Under the pieces are notes generated by a model. That model had not been told where the DNA came from. It searched no databases and saw only the letters and a program-made list of their open reading frames with translations. From Bradyrhizobium sp. CCBAU 53338 (GTDB lineage Bacteria > Pseudomonadota > Alphaproteobacteria > Rhizobiales > Xanthobacteraceae), in NCBI RefSeq assembly GCF_015291665.1, contig NZ_CP030048.1, positions 6,510,001 to 6,574,000 on the forward strand: a stretch of DNA of 64,000 nt, given 5' to 3'. Below, piece by piece: positions 42,648-49,357 of the stretch (position 1 is its first letter; each line of letters opens with the position of its first letter). A program made the position numbers and the translations under genes.

Positions 42648-43367
42648 CTATTCCGTCGTGCTGACTTCCCAGGTGGCGTGGCGTACGCCGGGCAAATGCT
42701 GGAGATCAGTCGCGACCGCATTCAGCTCGTTCGGATCGACCGCGGTCGCCACCAGCTTGGCGACGATTTCCAGGAGGTCGTCGTCTCCGATCTCGACCAC
42801 GTCGACATCGGCCACGGGGTATTTGGCGGCTTCGAGCTTGTCGACGAGACGGTCGCGCATGTCGGGCAAGGCGTCGGTCGTGACCGCCAGTTTGAAGTAG
42901 TAGGTCGCCTCGAGCGCCTTCTCGTTCAGCGGAATGCGGTTGATGGCATTGACAAGCGGGCGCAGCATGGTGTTGCCGGCGATGACGAACACGGTCAGCG
43001 CCGCCGCCTGCGCGACCATGTCGGCGCCGGCGCAGGAGCCGACCGCGGCCGAGGCCCACAGCGTCGCCGCGGTGTTGAGGCCCCGTACGTCCATGCCCTG
43101 CTTCATGATGACGCCGGCGCCGAGGAAGCCGATGCCCGAGACGACATAGGCGATCACCCGCACGGCACCGTCCGCACCGGCCAGATGCATGGCGAGATCG
43201 ACGAAGGCCGCCGCGCCAACCGCGACCAGCACGTTGGTGCGCAGGCCCGCGGTGCGTTGGCGATATTGCCGCTCGGCTCCGATCAGCGTGCCCAGCACAA
43301 AGGCCGCGAACAGGCTCACCAGCGTGTCGGCGAAATCAGCAAGCTGGAAGGTCGTCAGGAACCGCAT
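42648..43367 (-). CDS. MgtC/SapB-family membrane protein
   Basis: 239 residues. Four or five N-terminal membrane helices with LGTLIGAERQYRQRTAGLRTNVLVA and GIGFLGAGVIMKQG, the hallmark MgtC sequences. The C-terminal soluble part (about 150-239) is an ACT-like domain (YYFKLAVTTDALPDMRDRLV). MgtC proteins modulate ATP synthase or phosphate and magnesium homeostasis and help survival under low magnesium or inside hosts. Single gene. Confidence 0.9.
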   Translation of the reverse strand: MRFLTTFQLADFADTLVSLFAAFVLGTLIGAERQYRQRTAGLRTNVLVAVGAAAFVDLAMHLAGADGAVRVIAYVVSGIGFLGAGVIMKQGMDVRGLNTAATLWASAAVGSCAGADMVAQAAALTVFVIAGNTMLRPLVNAINRIPLNEKALEATYYFKLAVTTDALPDMRDRLVDKLEAAKYPVADVDVVEIGDDDLLEIVAKLVATAVDPNELNAVATDLQHLPGVRHATWEVSTTE

Positions 43368-43397
43368 GATTCCCTATACGGCCGGAACGATGACAGA

Positions 43398-44417
43398 TCA
43401 AAGCTCCAGCAGACCGCCGTCCCCATTTTCGTCGGCGAAGGCGAGCAGCGTGCCCTTGGCATTCCAGGCGATCGCGGCGACCGGCGGGGTGCCGTTGCGG
43501 CGGACCAGGATCTCGGCGCCGTCCTCCAGACGCACCATCAGCACGGTGCCATCGCTGTAGCCGCAGGCCAGAATGTCGTTCTTCGGATGGCAGGCCACCA
43601 CGGCCACACGGGCCTGAAGCGGCGCGAGCATCGCGGGCTCCTTGCCCATCGGGCCGTCCTTGCTGGCAAACGGCCAGATGATGACAGTGTCGGCGCCCGA
43701 GGTCGCCAGTCCCTTGCCGCCCGCGCTCCAGGACATCGAGCGGACGCGGCCGGGATAGCCGGTCATGCGCATGTGCCTGTTGTCCGCGAGCCTCCAACCG
43801 TGCAGCGCGGGCTCGTGCATCGCGGTGACCAGAAATTTGTTGTCCGGGCTGAAGGTGACGGCGTGATGCGAGCCGGCCCAGGGCAGGAATTCCGCCGATC
43901 CCTCCATGTTGGGAAACCACAGCGTGGCGCCGTTGTAGTGCGCGATCGCGAGTCGCAGGCCTTTCGGCGCGAACGCGAGACCGCCGACGGTCGAGGGCAC
44001 GTCGAGGGACTTTTCCTCGGCCTTGCCGCTCTTGACGGTCGCCGTCTTGCCGGCGGACCACGCGAAGGCGCCATCCGGATGCAACGCGACGGCATCGATC
44101 CAGCGCCGCTTCGGATCGGTCGCGAGCAGCGTCGCCTCGCCCTTGGCATCGAGCGAGACGACCTTGCCGTCGTCGCCGCCCATGACGAGGCGCTTGCCGT
44201 CGGAAGCCGTCGACAGAATGCCGCCGCCGTGAACGGCAACGGTGCTGACCTCACCCTTCGCGTCGACGAACGCGACATTCTCCTCGCCGCCGACGAAGGC
44301 GGCGCGGGGCCCGAGGAAATGCACCGACGTGACGGCCATGCCGAGCGTCACGGGCTTGACGCGATCGGTGACGGAGACGATCGAGGCGGAATCGGGGGCC
44401 GGCGAAAACTCTTTCAT
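43398..44417 (-). CDS. WD40-repeat protein, last gene of the zinc operon
   Basis: 339 residues from ATG 44417, which overlaps the COG0523 GTPase stop (TGATG). WD40-like repeats recur about every 40 residues (e.g. AVTFSPDNKFLVTAMHE, VRSMSWSAGGKGLATSGAD, VAVVACHPKNDILACGYSD, VAAIAWNAKGTLLAFADE), predicting one seven-bladed propeller. No signal peptide or metal motif. Translational coupling to a metallochaperone GTPase suggests a scaffold or chaperone role in zinc allocation; no direct evidence. Confidence 0.86.
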   Translation of the reverse strand: MKEFSPAPDSASIVSVTDRVKPVTLGMAVTSVHFLGPRAAFVGGEENVAFVDAKGEVSTVAVHGGGILSTASDGKRLVMGGDDGKVVSLDAKGEATLLATDPKRRWIDAVALHPDGAFAWSAGKTATVKSGKAEEKSLDVPSTVGGLAFAPKGLRLAIAHYNGATLWFPNMEGSAEFLPWAGSHHAVTFSPDNKFLVTAMHEPALHGWRLADNRHMRMTGYPGRVRSMSWSAGGKGLATSGADTVIIWPFASKDGPMGKEPAMLAPLQARVAVVACHPKNDILACGYSDGTVLMVRLEDGAEILVRRNGTPPVAAIAWNAKGTLLAFADENGDGGLLEL

Positions 44418-45460
44418 CACGAGACGATGCAGCTCTCGAAGCCTTCGCGAATGGCCTTCTCCGGCAATTCGCGGCCGATGAAGACGAGGCGGCTCTCGCG
44501 CGGCTCGCCCTCCTTCCACTTCCGCTGGTGGTTGCCCTCCAGCATCATGTGGACGCCCTGGAAGACGTAGCGGTCGTCGTCGTCGTGGAAGGCGAGGATG
44601 CCCTTGGAGCGCAGGATCTTGCCGCCCTCGACCTGCACCAGGTTCTGGAGCCAGGGCATGAACACATTCGGATCGAGCGGCTTGTCGGTCTTGAGCGACA
44701 GGGACTGCATGTCCTCGTCGTGATAGTGCTTCAGGCCGTGGCCATGATCATGGTGGTGATGGTCGTGGTCGTGATGGTGGTGATGATCATGATCGTGGTC
44801 ATCGGCCACGAGAAAGTCAGGCTCGATGTCGAGGATACGGTCGAGATCGAACGCACCGCGATCGAGCACGTCGGCCAGCGCCACCGAACAGCGCTCGGTG
44901 CGATGGAGTTTCGCATAGGGGTTGATGCCGCGGATGCGGGCCTCGACCTCGGCGAGTTCCGGCTTGGTGACGAGATCAGTCTTGTTCAGCACGATGACGT
45001 CGGCAAACGCGATCTGGTTCTTGGCCTCGGGCGCATCCTTGAGACGATCGGACAGCCATTTGGCGTCGGCGACCGTGACGACCGCATCAAGCCGCGCGTT
45101 CTTCTGCACGTCCTCGTCGACGAAGAAGGTCTGGGCGACCGGCGCGGGATCGGCAAGACCCGTGGTCTCGACGATGACGGCGTCGAACTTGCCCTTGCGC
45201 TTCATCAACCCGTCCATGATGCGGACGAGGTCGCCGCGCACGGTGCAGCAGATGCAGCCGTTGTTCATCTCGAACACTTCCTCATCGGCGCCGATGATGA
45301 GGTCGTTGTCGATGCCGATCTCGCCGAATTCGTTGACGATGACGGCGTATTTCTTGCCGTGGTTCTCCGACAGGATGCGGTTCAAGAGCGTGGTCTTGCC
45401 GGCACCGAGATAGCCGGTCAGGACGGTCACGGGAATTTTGGAGGCGGTCGCTTCAGGCAT
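44417..45460 (-). CDS. COG0523 (CobW/ZigA-type) metallochaperone GTPase
   Basis: 347 residues. Walker A is GYLGAGKTTL (about residues 16-25), the metal-binding CxCC is in GCICC (about 69-73), and the G-protein NKTD motif is at about 158-161. A long His/Asp-rich insertion (about 218-245) separates the GTPase from the C-terminal CobW_C domain. Proteins of this type deliver zinc to client enzymes when zinc is scarce. Its position behind znuABC-type genes and a Zur-like box supports zinc rather than cobalt. Confidence 0.9.
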   Translation of the reverse strand: MPEATASKIPVTVLTGYLGAGKTTLLNRILSENHGKKYAVIVNEFGEIGIDNDLIIGADEEVFEMNNGCICCTVRGDLVRIMDGLMKRKGKFDAVIVETTGLADPAPVAQTFFVDEDVQKNARLDAVVTVADAKWLSDRLKDAPEAKNQIAFADVIVLNKTDLVTKPELAEVEARIRGINPYAKLHRTERCSVALADVLDRGAFDLDRILDIEPDFLVADDHDHDHHHHHDHDHHHHDHGHGLKHYHDEDMQSLSLKTDKPLDPNVFMPWLQNLVQVEGGKILRSKGILAFHDDDDRYVFQGVHMMLEGNHQRKWKEGEPRESRLVFIGRELPEKAIREGFESCIVS

Positions 45461-45517
45461 AACAACTCCGGATCGGGCTTTTCCGCGCGACGCGAGGCGG
45501 CGGGGTGGCCCCCTGCC

Positions 45518-46381
45518 CTAATGGTCAAGCGCGCTGGTCAGGGCCTTTATATTGTGCCTGACCATGTCAATGTAAGTGGGTGCAGGCCCCTTTTCGCCGG
45601 TCAAACCGTCCGAAATGAGGGTCCCGCCGACCTTTGCGCCGCTCTCGGCCGCGATCTGCCGGATCAGCCGGTCATCGCTGATATTTTCAAGAAATACCGC
45701 CGGGATTCTTTGGGCCTTGATCTGGCCGATGATGGCGGCGATGTCCCGCGCGCTCGGCTCGGTTTCGGTGGAGACACCCAGGGGGGCGATGAACTGAATG
45801 CCATATTCCGCAGCAAAATAGCCGAAGGCATCGTGGGTCGAGATCACCTTGCGCCGCTCGGGCGGGATCTTGGCGACGGCATCCCGGACCTCGCGGTCGA
45901 GGGCTTCGAGCCTTTCCTGATAGGTCTTGGCCTGGGTGCGAAAGAAGTCCGCATCATCCGGGTCGGTAGCGGCCAGCGCGTTGGCGACGTCGGTCACGTA
46001 GATCTTGGCGTTGGGGATGGATTGCCAGGCATGCGGATCGGCGGCCGAGCCGAGTTTCAGCGGCGCGATGCCGGCACTCGCGGTGACGACCTGCGCCTTG
46101 CTGCCGGAGGATTGCACGAGACGCGGCAGCCAGCCTTCGAGGCCGAGCCCGTTGACGACGACGAGTTTCGCCTCCGCGATGCGTTTCGCATCTGATGGCG
46201 CCGGAGTGTAGACATGGACGTCGCTGTCCGGGCCGACCAGGATCGTGACGTTGACCCGGTCGCCGCCAACATTCCGCACGAAATCGCCGAGGATCGAGAA
46301 GCTCGCGACCACATTGAGCCGCTCGGCGGCGTGCAGCGGCGAGGCGATCACCAAGAGCAAACAGAGGAGAATGCGCCGCAT
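45518..46381 (-). CDS. znuA: Zinc ABC transporter periplasmic binding protein (ZnuA/TroA family)
   Basis: 287 residues from ATG 46381 (GGAAG 7 bases upstream); GTG 46387 overlapping the permease stop is an alternative. Signal peptide RRILLCLLLVIASPLHA. Metal ligands appear as His in SDVHVY, His in DPHAW, His in STHDAFGYF and Asp in LISDGLTG, a three-His plus Asp set. Unlike enteric ZnuA it has no His-rich loop. It delivers zinc to the membrane permease. Confidence 0.87.
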   Translation of the reverse strand: MRRILLCLLLVIASPLHAAERLNVVASFSILGDFVRNVGGDRVNVTILVGPDSDVHVYTPAPSDAKRIAEAKLVVVNGLGLEGWLPRLVQSSGSKAQVVTASAGIAPLKLGSAADPHAWQSIPNAKIYVTDVANALAATDPDDADFFRTQAKTYQERLEALDREVRDAVAKIPPERRKVISTHDAFGYFAAEYGIQFIAPLGVSTETEPSARDIAAIIGQIKAQRIPAVFLENISDDRLIRQIAAESGAKVGGTLISDGLTGEKGPAPTYIDMVRHNIKALTSALDH

Positions 46382-46383
46382 CG

Positions 46384-47253
46384 TCACGCTTCCAGATGGC
46401 GGCCCGGAAACATCTGCCGGACGATACCGCCTACGCGGCCGAACAGGACCGAGACGATGTAGAATACCGTCGCCACCAGAATGATCGCAGGGCCCGAAGG
46501 CACGCGGGTCTGGAACGACAGCACGAGGCCGGCATAGCCGGAGAGAGCAGCAGCGACGACCGCGATGCAGATCATCATTGTGAGATCGCGCGACCAGAAC
46601 CGCGCAATGCCGGCCGGCAGGATCATCAGGCCCACGGCCAGCAAGGTACCAAGCGCCTGAAACCCGTTGACGAGGTTGATGACGACCAGTGCGAGGAAGG
46701 CGAGATGCGCGGGGCCGCCGGCACGGCTGACGGTGCGCAGGAACAGGGGATCGACGCTCTCGATCACCAGCGGCCGATAGATTACCGCAAGCACCAGCAG
46801 CGTCACCGTGGCGTTGAAGGCGACCACCAGCAGCGTCTGGTCGTCCATGGCGAGGATGTTGCCGAACAACACGTGCAGCAGGTCGATATTGGTGCCCTTG
46901 ATCGAGACGATGGTGACGCCGAGCGCCAGCGAGGCCAGATAGAATGTCGCGAGCGAGGCGTCCTCCTTCAGCCCGGTCGAGCGCGCGACCACGCCGGCGA
47001 GGATCGCCACCGCAAAGCCCGCAATCAATCCTCCGGCCGTCATCGCGAACAGATTGAGGCCGGAGAGCAGGAAGCCAACGGCCGCGCCGGGCAGGATCGC
47101 ATGCGCCATGGCATCGCCGACGAGGCTCATCCGGCGCAGCATCAGGAACACGCCGATCGGCGCACCCGCCAGCGAGAGCGCGATCACGGCGGCAAGCGCC
47201 CGCCGCATGAATTCGAACTCGGTGAACGGGCCGATCAGCGCGTCATGGATCAT
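46384..47253 (-). CDS. znuB: Zinc ABC transporter permease (ZnuB family)
   Basis: 289 residues with about eight membrane helices of the ABC-3 permease family. Typical segments are MSLVGDAMAHAILPGAAVGF and RAGGPAHLAFLALVVINLV followed by LGTLLAVGLMILPAGIARFW. It starts 6 bp after the ATPase stop and its stop abuts the binding-protein gene. Confidence 0.9.
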   Translation of the reverse strand: MIHDALIGPFTEFEFMRRALAAVIALSLAGAPIGVFLMLRRMSLVGDAMAHAILPGAAVGFLLSGLNLFAMTAGGLIAGFAVAILAGVVARSTGLKEDASLATFYLASLALGVTIVSIKGTNIDLLHVLFGNILAMDDQTLLVVAFNATVTLLVLAVIYRPLVIESVDPLFLRTVSRAGGPAHLAFLALVVINLVNGFQALGTLLAVGLMILPAGIARFWSRDLTMMICIAVVAAALSGYAGLVLSFQTRVPSGPAIILVATVFYIVSVLFGRVGGIVRQMFPGRHLEA

Positions 47254-47259
47254 CTGGGA

Positions 47260-48015
47260 TCACGCCGCTCGCGAGCTGACATCGTCGGCCGCGCAGGCCG
47301 CTGCGGTGTCGTCGAAGGCTTCGCACATCCGCATCGCGACCATCAGGTTTTCAGGCGTCAGCACCTCGGCCGTCGGTCCCCAGGCCACGGGGCCGCGCGC
47401 CAGTACCAAGGTCTCGCTGAAATGGGCACGTACCATCTCCATGTCGTGGAGCGCGGCGAGCACGGTGCGACCCTCGGCATGCCAGTGCTTCACCAGCGTA
47501 AGCAGATCGGCAATGGTCTTGCTGTCGATGGCGTTGAAGGGCTCGTCGAGCACGATCAGGCGCGCATCCTGGAGCAGCACGCGCGCGAACAGCACGCGTT
47601 GCATCTGCCCGCCGGAGAGCGTGCCGATCGGGCGGTTCTCGAACCCGTTGAGGCCGACGGAGGCGATCGCGCGAAGAATCTTCTCGCGGGCGACTTTGCC
47701 AATGCCGCCGAACAGGCCGGTCCCGCGCCACAGGCCGGTGCCGACGAAATCGAACACGGAGATCGGGAAGCTGCGGTCGATGTCCGCGCTCTGCGGCAGA
47801 TAGGCGATGTCGCGGGCATCCAGCCCGCCGAGATGGATGCTGCCGTCGAGCGGCTTGAGAATGCCGACGATGCCGCGCAGCAGCGTCGACTTGCCGGCGC
47901 CGTTCGGGCCGATCACCGCGACCAGCGCGCCGGATGCGACCTCGCCATCGAGATGGTGCACGGCCGGGTGACGGTCGTAGCCGAGCGTGACGTTGTGAAA
48001 GTGTAGCGCAGCCAT
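47260..48015 (-). CDS. znuC: Zinc ABC transporter ATP-binding protein (ZnuC family)
   Basis: 251 residues from ATG 48015, with GAGG upstream inside the preceding gene's end. Walker A GPNGAGKST (about residues 38-46), ABC signature LSGGQMQR, Walker B LIVLDEP and the H-loop region AALHDMEM are all present. It powers zinc import with the permease at 46384-47253. The start lies 3 bp after the stop of the His-rich peptide gene. Confidence 0.92.
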   Translation of the reverse strand: MAALHFHNVTLGYDRHPAVHHLDGEVASGALVAVIGPNGAGKSTLLRGIVGILKPLDGSIHLGGLDARDIAYLPQSADIDRSFPISVFDFVGTGLWRGTGLFGGIGKVAREKILRAIASVGLNGFENRPIGTLSGGQMQRVLFARVLLQDARLIVLDEPFNAIDSKTIADLLTLVKHWHAEGRTVLAALHDMEMVRAHFSETLVLARGPVAWGPTAEVLTPENLMVAMRMCEAFDDTAAACAADDVSSRAA

Positions 48016-48017
48016 GG

Positions 48018-48278
48018 TCACCTCATCGCCAGCCAAACGATGCCCCAGAGCACGGCGCAGACGGCAACGGCGGCCGAGAGGCGGCCGGCCATCGTCATGC
48101 GCAGGATCGACCAGGGCGCGTCCTGGGCCGGGTGCGGCGAAGCCACATCGTGGACATGGGCGTGGGTGTGGTCGTGCCCGTGCGAATGCCCGGGCTCGTG
48201 GGAATGGCCGTGAGAGTGGCCAGACGAATGACCATGAGCGTGGTCGTGAGGATGGGCGGGGGACGCGGCGGGAACCAT
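48018..48278 (-). CDS. Histidine-rich single-pass membrane peptide, first gene of the zinc operon
   Basis: 86 residues. Residues about 9-50 contain some 17 His, mostly as alternating GHSH, HAH and HDH, a strong metal-binding tract. A C-terminal membrane helix follows (LSAAVAVCAVLWGIVWLAM), placing the His tract on one face of the inner membrane. No clear Shine-Dalgarno precedes ATG 48278, which lies about 10 bp from the Zur-like box, so the message may be nearly leaderless. It probably buffers or hands over zinc to the transporter. Not a named family to my knowledge. Confidence 0.8.
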   Translation of the reverse strand: MVPAASPAHPHDHAHGHSSGHSHGHSHEPGHSHGHDHTHAHVHDVASPHPAQDAPWSILRMTMAGRLSAAVAVCAVLWGIVWLAMR

Positions 48279-48287
48279 GCCAAGAAC

Positions 48288-48300
48288 GTTATATTATAAC
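48288..48300. promoter_or_regulatory. Zur-like operator overlapping the -10 of the zinc operon
   Basis: GTTATATTATAAC is a perfect dyad (GTTATA-T-TATAAC) matching the GTTATAnTATAAC pattern of alphaproteobacterial Zur sites. On the minus strand it contains TATAAT, so Zur-Zn binding would block the promoter. It sits directly before the operon's first gene. Confidence 0.8.
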
Positions 48301-48412
48301 ATTACGCCTGTCCACGGGATGCTCAGGGCTTGCCGGTCGCCAGCGCGACGGCGGCCGCCGCGAACGGGAACGGGACGGCGCGAAGACGCCCCCCAGGTCA
48401 ATTCCGCACAGC

Positions 48413-48445
48413 AAAAAGGCGGCCGCGCGAGCGACCGCCTTTGTT
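48413..48445 (-). terminator. Terminator downstream of sodB
   Basis: Read on the minus strand, AAGGCGG (48441-48435) pairs with CCGCCTT (48422-48416), followed by TTT in the tail. The TTTGTTT on the other side makes it potentially bidirectional. Confidence 0.65.
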
Positions 48446-48449
48446 TCCC

Positions 48450-48520
48450 TCATTCCGGGGCAGCAAAGCCGAACTTTCGAGATCCCGGGTTCGATGCTTC
48501 GCATCGCCCCGGGATGACGG
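48450..48520. repeat. Intergenic palindromic repeat (TCATTCCGGGG type) near sodB
   Basis: TCATTCCGGGGC at one end is mirrored by GCCCCGGGATGAC at the other, with GATCCCGGGTTCGATGC inside. This diverged copy belongs to the same family as the elements flanking gltD. Confidence 0.7.
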
Positions 48521-48528
48521 AGTGAACC

Positions 48529-49125
48529 TCACGCCTTCTCGAACAGGGACTCGACGTATTCCCAGTTCACGAGGTTCTCGACGAACGCCTTGAGATAATC
48601 CGGACGGCGGTTGCGATAATCGATGTAGTAGGAATGCTCCCAGACGTCGCAGCCGAGAATCGGGGTGGCGCCGTGCACCAGCGGATTCTCGCCGTTCGGG
48701 GTCTTGGAGATCTCGAGCTTGCCGTTCTTGACCTGGAGCCAGCACCAGCCGGAGCCGAACTGGCCGACGCCCGCCGCCTGGAAGTCGGTCTTGAACTTCT
48801 CGAAGCCGCCGAGGTCCTCGTTGATCTTCTTCTCGAGCTTGCCCGGCAGCTTGGTGCCACCGCCATTCGGCTTCATCCAGCTCCAGAAATGGATGTGGTT
48901 GTAGTGTTGGCCGGCGTTGTTGAACACCGCAGGATTCTTGCCGAACGAGCCCTTGACGATCTCCTCAAGGGACTTGCCTTCCCATTCGGTGCCCTTGAGC
49001 GCGTTGTTGCCGTTGGTGACGTAGGCCTGATGATGCTTGTCGTGGTGGAATTCCAGCGTCTCCTTCGACATGAACTGGCCGAGGGCGTCATAGGCGTAAG
49101 GGAGTGGGGGCAGCGTAAAGGTCAT
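48529..49125 (-). CDS. sodB: Superoxide dismutase, Fe/Mn family (iron-type)
   Basis: 198 residues from ATG 49125. Metal ligands: His in EFHHDKHHQAYV, His in NNAGQHYNHIHFW, and Asp and His in DVWEHSYYIDYRN. The Gln in NNAGQ at the N-terminal position favours the iron form, although cambialistic use is possible. It converts superoxide to peroxide and oxygen in the cytoplasm. Monocistronic, with a terminator downstream. Confidence 0.93.
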   Translation of the reverse strand: MTFTLPPLPYAYDALGQFMSKETLEFHHDKHHQAYVTNGNNALKGTEWEGKSLEEIVKGSFGKNPAVFNNAGQHYNHIHFWSWMKPNGGGTKLPGKLEKKINEDLGGFEKFKTDFQAAGVGQFGSGWCWLQVKNGKLEISKTPNGENPLVHGATPILGCDVWEHSYYIDYRNRRPDYLKAFVENLVNWEYVESLFEKA

Positions 49126-49357
49126 GGGTTCTTGTCCGCAACTGGTGGGGAACGTTCTAACGGTCACCCCTTATAGAAGGTTCCTGCGTCGTTAAATACC
49201 GCCAATTTGCGAAAAGCCATGACGCGATCGCGCGGGCTGATTGCACAACTTCGCCGCAGGCAAGCGCATGTTCACCGGATGTGCTGCAAAATATCATTGC
49301 CTTTGAAGCGCTTATGACAGAACGAATGCACCACCAGCCGGGACCCAAGGCAGAGCC

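What the first reader, a model, noticed from the sequence alone, without database searches (positions are those of the whole stretch)
43398..48300. Six-gene Zur operon with a separate His-rich membrane peptide and a WD40 partner
A Zur-like dyad overlaps the -10 of an operon encoding a His-rich membrane peptide, ZnuC, ZnuB, ZnuA, a COG0523 GTPase and a WD40 protein. Gene ends overlap or nearly touch through znuA; a 57-bp gap precedes the GTPase. ZnuA here lacks the His-rich loop of enteric ZnuA; the peptide may supply that function in trans. The WD40 protein, coupled by TGATG to the GTPase, could be a client scaffold. This is the best candidate in the window for an incompletely described system.
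Basis: partly seen in the sequence, partly recalled or inferred. Interest (0 to 1): 0.7.

Follow-up and report, generated by a model that had tools for sequence, protein, structure and literature searches.

The report
Zinc-uptake operon with overlooked small protein
A soil bacterium's zinc-scarcity operon carries, besides a known type of zinc importer and zinc-handling proteins, a tiny membrane protein that sits next to this importer type in many other bacteria but appears to have no described role.

Summary
The operon is real: six same-strand genes behind a Zur-box-like palindrome (48288-48300) in a Bradyrhizobium-like genome. Corrections: the transporter is AztABC/ZniCBA-like, not enteric ZnuABC; no sigma-70 promoter was matched. 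The GTPase-WD40 pairing is strong (112 of 119 family genomes have both, 6 neither, 0 WD40 alone), but Haas et al. 2009 already reported it. What looks new is the small first gene. It lies directly before aztA in 101 of 101 readable family loci. Its profile, run alone over 329 Pseudomonadota genomes, gave 57 hits; all 55 in genomes with an AztB lie 668-979 bp upstream of aztB. The core is about 35 residues: one membrane span, an invariant Arg, a near-invariant Trp. It also precedes Klebsiella (zni locus) and gonococcal transporter genes. The His tail is variable, predicted cytosolic, and occurs with loop-bearing and loop-less binding proteins alike, so replacing the ZnuA loop in trans is not supported. 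In 25 named loci with aztA the small gene is in 14 of 15 without AztD and 0 of 10 with AztD, but that is one evolutionary switch. A role as a dedicated importer subunit is inferred, not shown.

The parts
48288..48300 (-). Zur-box-like palindrome GTTATAATATAAC, holding TATAAT at 48298-48293
   Evidence: exact palindrome; conserved upstream of aztA in the family
48018..48278 (-). Small membrane protein, 86 aa: 56-residue N-terminal tail with 17 His, conserved SILRM....R motif, one C-terminal membrane span with conserved W
   Evidence: pooled pN/pS 0.32; no Pfam family at E 0.1 and only two sub-cut-off NCBIfam matches
47260..48015 (-). ABC ATPase, AztA-like
   Evidence: NCBIfam AztA 211.7 bits, cut-off 220
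46384..47253 (-). ABC permease, AztB-like
   Evidence: NCBIfam AztB 255.6 bits, cut-off 280; Pfam ABC-3
45518..46381 (-). Periplasmic binding protein, AztC/ZniA-like, without the His-rich loop
   Evidence: NCBIfam AztC 307.3 bits, cut-off 350; best PDB chains 5kzj, 5w56, 8svc; loop GIAPLKLGSAADPHAW
44417..45460 (-). COG0523 (CobW/G3E) GTPase with a His/Asp-rich insert
   Evidence: Pfam cobW and CobW_C; PDB relative YjiA; GAGKTT and CICC motifs read in the sequence
43398..44417 (-). WD40 protein, predicted cytosolic, predicted eight-bladed propeller (32 strands in the model)
   Evidence: model pLDDT 94.6; paired with COG0523

Best explanation
A Zur-repressed zinc-scarcity operon. When zinc falls, Zur leaves the box. 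An AztABC/ZniCBA-like importer (binding protein, permease, ATPase) brings zinc in. The first gene encodes a dedicated small subunit of this importer: one span, N-terminus inside, lying beside the permease through a helix with an invariant Arg at the inner face and a near-invariant Trp, and helping assembly, stability or gating. Here its cytosolic tail carries histidines that could catch zinc leaving the permease. Inside, the COG0523 GTPase (also His-rich) would take zinc and pass it to clients, with the WD40 propeller as its constant partner, adaptor or client. Shown here: gene order, box conservation, coding selection, near-exclusive linkage of the small gene to aztAB, WD40-GTPase co-occurrence, predicted fold. 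Inferred: topology, contact with AztB, zinc binding by the tail, zinc hand-over, WD40 role.
For: Small gene directly before aztA in 101 of 101 readable family loci (102 examined, one without aztA); random-anchor control 18 of 3731. Searched alone, it lies beside an aztA relative in 20 of 22 non-self hits in its class (240 genomes) and in 30 of 30 fetched best hits in its phylum (57 hits in 329 genomes, of which this genome and 8 of its family). Where AztB was also found, 55 of 55 (this genome counted) lie 668-979 bp upstream of it on the same strand. Purifying selection: pN/pS 0.32 pooled over 30 related, non-independent pairs. More Arg/Lys on the N side of the span than on the C side in 86 of 86 (the positive-inside rule is recalled). 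Core conserved in alpha, beta and gamma proteobacteria: invariant Arg, Trp in at least 90% of 26. A Zur candidate is encoded at C1:7189312-7189650. A second box of this kind precedes a DUF2946 protein and a TonB receptor. WD40 and GTPase: 112 of 119 both, 6 neither, 1 GTPase only, 0 WD40 only; under 1 kb apart on one strand in 88 of 112.
Against: No expression, topology or binding data. Twelve of 20 further AztB loci examined show neither the small gene nor AztD, so this importer type can exist without it. The tail has 0-4 His in 19 of 101 family members and does not follow the presence of COG0523-WD40 in the operon (Skermanella and Gemmobacter have the pair but no His tail), so a hand-over from tail to GTPase is weak. 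The three transporter proteins miss the NCBIfam Azt cut-offs and the Zur candidate misses its own. Genome-wide the box is not more frequent than its reversed control.
Confidence: 0.6

Rival explanations
1. The small ORF is a regulatory leader: its translation, through His codons or coupling, tunes aztA expression, and the protein itself does nothing.
For: It is the first gene, between Zur box and aztA, and often abuts or overlaps aztA.
Against: The conserved part is the membrane span and Arg/Trp, not the His run; pN/pS 0.32; the His run is missing in many relatives.
Confidence: 0.12
2. The His-rich tail is periplasmic and feeds zinc to the loop-less binding protein.
For: The window combines a rich tail (17 His) with a loop-less binding protein; weak negative correlation (rho -0.20, p 0.06).
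Against: 44 of 86 loci have both a His tail and a His loop; genus means show no correlation; charges predict N-inside in 86 of 86.
Confidence: 0.08
3. The small protein is a membrane-anchored cytosolic zinc buffer that only shares the operon and does not touch the transporter.
For: Up to 19 His in the tail; His-rich insert in the GTPase too.
Against: The core persists without a His tail in Methylobacterium, Skermanella, Klebsiella, Neisseria and others, next to aztA.
Confidence: 0.15
4. The COG0523-WD40 pair is an independent zinc-distribution module merely co-regulated with the importer (compatible with the main explanation of the small protein).
For: The pair stays adjacent in 9 of 10 family genomes that lack AztB; in 14 of 20 fetched class loci no aztABC of 45% identity or more lies in the same stretch.
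Against: GTPase within 6 kb of AztB in 90 of 103 family genomes with both; shared Zur box.
Confidence: 0.5

Closest known systems
AztABCD of Paracoccus denitrificans
   Same: Best NCBIfam models for all three transporter proteins; Zur control (passage); AztC-type chains are the closest solved relatives of the binding protein
   Different: Scores below the curated cut-offs; no AztD match in the genome; AztC loop absent; the 10 AztD-bearing loci read lack the small gene
ZniCBA of Klebsiella pneumoniae and Rhizobium leguminosarum
   Same: Zinc-regulated importer with a loop-less binding protein (passages); the Klebsiella locus flanked by mltB and pncC carries the small ORF here
   Different: The passages seen describe no small protein; no GTPase or WD40 match within 3 kb in those Klebsiella loci
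COG0523 subfamily 5 (Haas et al. 2009)
   Same: Clusters with WD40 genes and znuABC, some behind Zur sites (passages)
   Different: Membership not tested by a tree here; the small protein is not mentioned in the passages seen
AztD, eight-bladed periplasmic zinc chaperone
   Same: Beta-propeller in a zinc operon (passages)
   Different: No meaningful sequence similarity to the WD40 protein (best 15.8 bits, E 2); the WD40 protein shows no signal peptide by eye

Membership tests
AztABC (NCBIfam equivalogs) | Scores above the curated cut-offs | tested here: not met
   AztA 211.7/220, AztB 255.6/280, AztC 307.3/350
AztABCD | AztD encoded | tested here: not met
   NF038015: no match in G000
AztABCD | Short His-bearing loop of AztC | tested here: not met
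   Loop has no His besides the DPHAW ligand
Enteric ZnuABC | Best match to ZnuA/ZnuB/ZnuC models | tested here: not met
   ZnuA 71.4 bits (cut-off 268), ZnuB 83.7 (284), ZnuC 98.2 (306), far below the Azt models
ZniCBA-type importer | Loop-less cluster A-I binding protein behind a Zur box | tested here: met
   (8svc E 7.2e-74); zinc specificity itself not testable here
COG0523 GTPases | cobW plus CobW_C domains | tested here: met
   202.3 and 95.7 bits, both above cut-off
COG0523 subfamily 5 | Phylogenetic placement | not tested
   Only gene neighbourhood compared
WD40 propellers | WD40 repeats and propeller fold | tested here: met
AztD | NF038015 match of the WD40 protein | tested here: not met
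   No AztD match in NCBIfam at E 0.1; blastp E 2
Zur regulon | Zur box in front and a Zur protein in the genome | tested here: inconclusive
   Box conserved; Zur candidate NF008646 E 1e-34 but 119.7 bits against cut-off 167; binding itself not testable here

The most novel reading that the evidence does not exclude
A single-span protein with a core of about 35 residues is an unrecognised, ancestral subunit of a whole branch of zinc ABC importers in alpha, beta and gamma proteobacteria, including the Klebsiella ZniCBA importer, gonococcal relatives and, judging by a 153-bp gap, perhaps the Rhizobium leguminosarum one; it was given up once, where the AztD chaperone came in, and in some lineages, the Bradyrhizobium family above all, it carries a cytosolic His tail that catches imported zinc.
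Probability: 0.4. Interest if true: 0.75.

Novelty: new variant of a known kind. Interest (0 to 1): 0.58.

Why it matters
Zinc importers are studied in pathogens and symbionts as three-part machines. If a tiny extra subunit belongs to a large branch of them, published mutants, reconstitutions and structures of such systems may be missing a part, and the switch between this subunit and AztD becomes a direct way to ask what each does. The tight WD40-GTPase coupling also gives a concrete candidate partner for a COG0523 subfamily that, by Haas et al. (passage), holds most eukaryotic members, human included (that these are the ZNG proteins is recalled).

Tried and rejected
Loop substitution in trans: tested by loop and tail counts, not supported. 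WD40 as a disguised AztD: rejected by sequence. AztD was not among the structural matches listed, which proves nothing. Genome-wide box count as evidence: dropped, since the reversed control has more sites. A rule that AztD and the small gene are the only two options: rejected; 12 of 20 loci show neither within the stretch fetched. Repeated evolutionary swapping of AztD and the small gene: rejected; AztD-bearing permeases are one clade, so it is one event. Promoter or terminator matches: none in 48000-48620; one terminator-like match in 43100-46600 on the other strand, below the shuffled mean. The class-level AztD search gave no match over the cut-off and 5 weak ones of 240, too few to test exclusion. 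A Skermanella pair without a His tail showed that tail and GTPase need not go together. Literature: no mention of the small protein in the listings or in the passages read; no paper was read whole; the library lacks most subscription journals.

Rows dropped before counts: COG0523 rows weaker than E 1e-106 and WD40 rows weaker than 1e-97 (weak WD40 matches in G031, G068, G109 count as absent), one binding protein with no readable loop, and 14 loci had none; 17 of 43 plasmid records were not fetched (many near-copies, 3 not listed); 27 of 57 phylum hits were not fetched but placed by coordinates; 4 of 24 AztB genomes without a small-gene hit were not fetched. The 20 class loci were picked among 31, mostly where the pair was already seen adjacent, so the pair count is given from all 31.
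Full report
WHAT IS THERE. The window lies in an 8.28-Mb genome; the named close relatives of its WD40 protein are Bradyrhizobium. On the minus strand six genes follow one another from 48278 to 43398 with gaps of 2, 6, 2 (or an overlap, by start codon), 57 and -1 nt. In front stands the palindrome GTTATAATATAAC at 48300-48288, 9 nt before the first start codon. It contains TATAAT, but no sigma-70 type promoter was matched, so the claim that it overlaps a -10 is possible, not shown.

IDENTITY OF THE TRANSPORTER. The best NCBIfam models are AztA, AztB and AztC, each just under its cut-off, far ahead of ZnuC, ZnuB and ZnuA. The binding protein's nearest solved relatives are the chains 5kzj, 5w56 and 8svc; a Rhizobium paper names 5W57 (same sequence set as 5w56) as AztC and 8SVC as Klebsiella ZniA (passages). 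Its loop region is GIAPLKLGSAADPHAW, with no extra His. It is the only ZnuA-family match in the genome. Loop-less zinc binding proteins are already known: passages of PMC12183173 and PMC10797113 say that ZniA of Rhizobium and Klebsiella lacks the loop.

REGULATION. Four FUR-family genes exist; the one at C1:7189312-7189650 is the Zur candidate (NF008646, E 1e-34, below cut-off), the others match Fur (below cut-off) and Irr models. The only other site with at most 1 mismatch (C1:5812469) precedes a DUF2946 protein and a TonB-dependent receptor, a sensible Zur target, though the reversed control pattern has 3 sites. Conservation is the stronger argument: at most 1 mismatch in 69 of 101 family loci against 0 of 893 control stretches. 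Several genera use a second form, GATACANTGTATC.

THE SMALL PROTEIN. All 101 family loci with a readable aztA (102 examined) have an ORF directly upstream with the same C-terminal pattern; 18 of 3731 random anchors gave such an ORF. The pattern was made on the same set, so two further searches were run. First, a profile of 50 of these proteins was searched in 240 genomes of the class: 23 hits; 20 of the 22 not from this genome lie beside an aztA relative, one is at a contig end, one has a stop inside. Second, a profile of 26 diverse members was searched in 329 genomes of the phylum: 57 hits, among them this genome and 8 of its family; the 30 best, fetched, all lie beside aztA and aztB; an AztB search (E 1e-50) of the same 329 genomes gave 79; 55 genomes have both, and in 55 of 55 the small gene is 668-979 bp upstream of aztB on the same strand; the 2 remaining hits are weak. 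Of the 24 AztB genomes without a hit, 20 were fetched: 5 do have the small ORF by a local profile search, 1 is doubtful, 2 have AztD, 12 show neither within the stretch. So the genome search misses some, and some importers truly seem to lack it.

NAMED EXAMPLES. AztB relatives were found on 43 plasmid records (some are chromosome-sized); 26 were read. The family-trained profile, run on all six frames of these 26 loci, put 14 hits first (E 6.5e-9 to 0.0088), all of them the ORF ending at or just before aztA; the next hit has E 0.29 and lies elsewhere. These are Methylobacterium, Skermanella, Azospirillum, Gemmobacter, Neorhizobium, Bartonella, two Thioclava, a Paracoccaceae strain, Comamonas, K. 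pneumoniae, K. aerogenes, Enterobacter and N. gonorrhoeae. Five of the 14 carry an annotated gene there, as hypothetical or uncharacterised protein; the gene table of that collection is incomplete. The ten loci with AztD (four of them seen only by tblastn) have none; the Bradyrhizobium p172 plasmid locus has neither, and the Roseomonas locus has no aztA in view. Where the small gene is present the Zur-like box starts 129-264 nt before aztA in 11 of 14 (0-3 mismatches; 5-6 mismatches in Skermanella, Azospirillum and Gemmobacter, that is none); in the ten AztD loci it starts 49-95 nt before (1-4 mismatches). In Rhizobium leguminosarum the Zur motif is 153 bp before zniC (PMC12183173, passage), room enough for such an ORF; that genome was not read here.

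WHAT THE SMALL PROTEIN LOOKS LIKE. Its core is about 35 residues with one membrane span, an invariant Arg before it and a Trp in at least 90% of 26. Arg and Lys on the N side outnumber those on the C side in 86 of 86 family members, which by the positive-inside rule (recalled) puts the N-terminus in the cytosol. The His tail is variable: median 7, range 0-19 in the family (start codons guessed), 17 in the window. It is missing in the 14 named relatives of other families but present in some other class loci (L211, L213, L214). pN/pS of the core is 0.32 pooled over 30 non-independent pairs. A profile search found 1071 relatives; the 120 listed bear only 'hypothetical protein' names or none, and no Pfam domain.

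LOOP SUBSTITUTION TESTED. Of 86 loci, 44 have at least 5 His in the tail and at least 2 extra in the binding-protein loop, 24 a His tail with a poor loop, 17 a poor tail with a loop, 1 neither; rho -0.20 (p 0.06), genus means -0.12 (p 0.49). The peptide is therefore not a stand-in for the loop, although a slight trade-off is not excluded.

AZTD. In a tree of 43 permeases AztD-bearing rows form one clade (100/100), placed by the midpoint root inside rows that carry the small gene (the six class rows checked, the ten family rows). The mutual exclusion in named loci (14 of 15 against 0 of 10) is thus one event, fitting a single replacement but not proving it.

VERDICT. An ordinary zinc-scarcity operon in outline, with a known GTPase-WD40 association, and one part that looks undescribed: a tiny membrane protein tied to this importer type across proteobacteria. 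No paper on it turned up in nine searches of the held library. Its role as a subunit is inference from linkage and conservation.

Noticed in passing
window 42648-43367: An MgtC-family gene starts 30 nt after the WD40 stop; MgtC also lies downstream of the WD40 gene in 19 of 102 fetched family stretches, so the operon may have a seventh gene.
   Followed up: partly
window 48529-49128: An Fe/Mn superoxide dismutase gene lies just upstream on the same strand; a relative is in 22 of 102 fetched stretches.
   Followed up: partly
L187 2470-5341 (C1:5812469 on): A second Zur-box-like site before a small DUF2946 protein and a TonB-dependent receptor, a candidate zinc outer-membrane system.
   Followed up: partly
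L168, L169, L170: Clusters of several COG0523 matches with a diverged WD40 gene and a Zur-like box at the head or between divergent halves.
   Followed up: no
L075, L079, L087, L091, L099, L104, L113, L122, L135, L141, L147, L153, L154, L157: Fourteen family loci have aztA and aztB but no binding-protein match in the stretch fetched.
   Followed up: no
L068, L072, L078, L103, L130, L148 and others: Some genera carry a GATACANTGTATC-type box instead of GTTATANTATAAC, which suggests a shifted Zur specificity.
   Followed up: no
L290, L291, L293, L294, L298, L299, L303-L305, L307-L309: Twelve AztB loci with neither the small gene nor AztD within the stretch.
   Followed up: no
L232 1481-2086: A DUF1826 gene lies directly before the small gene in Skermanella mucosa.
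   Followed up: no
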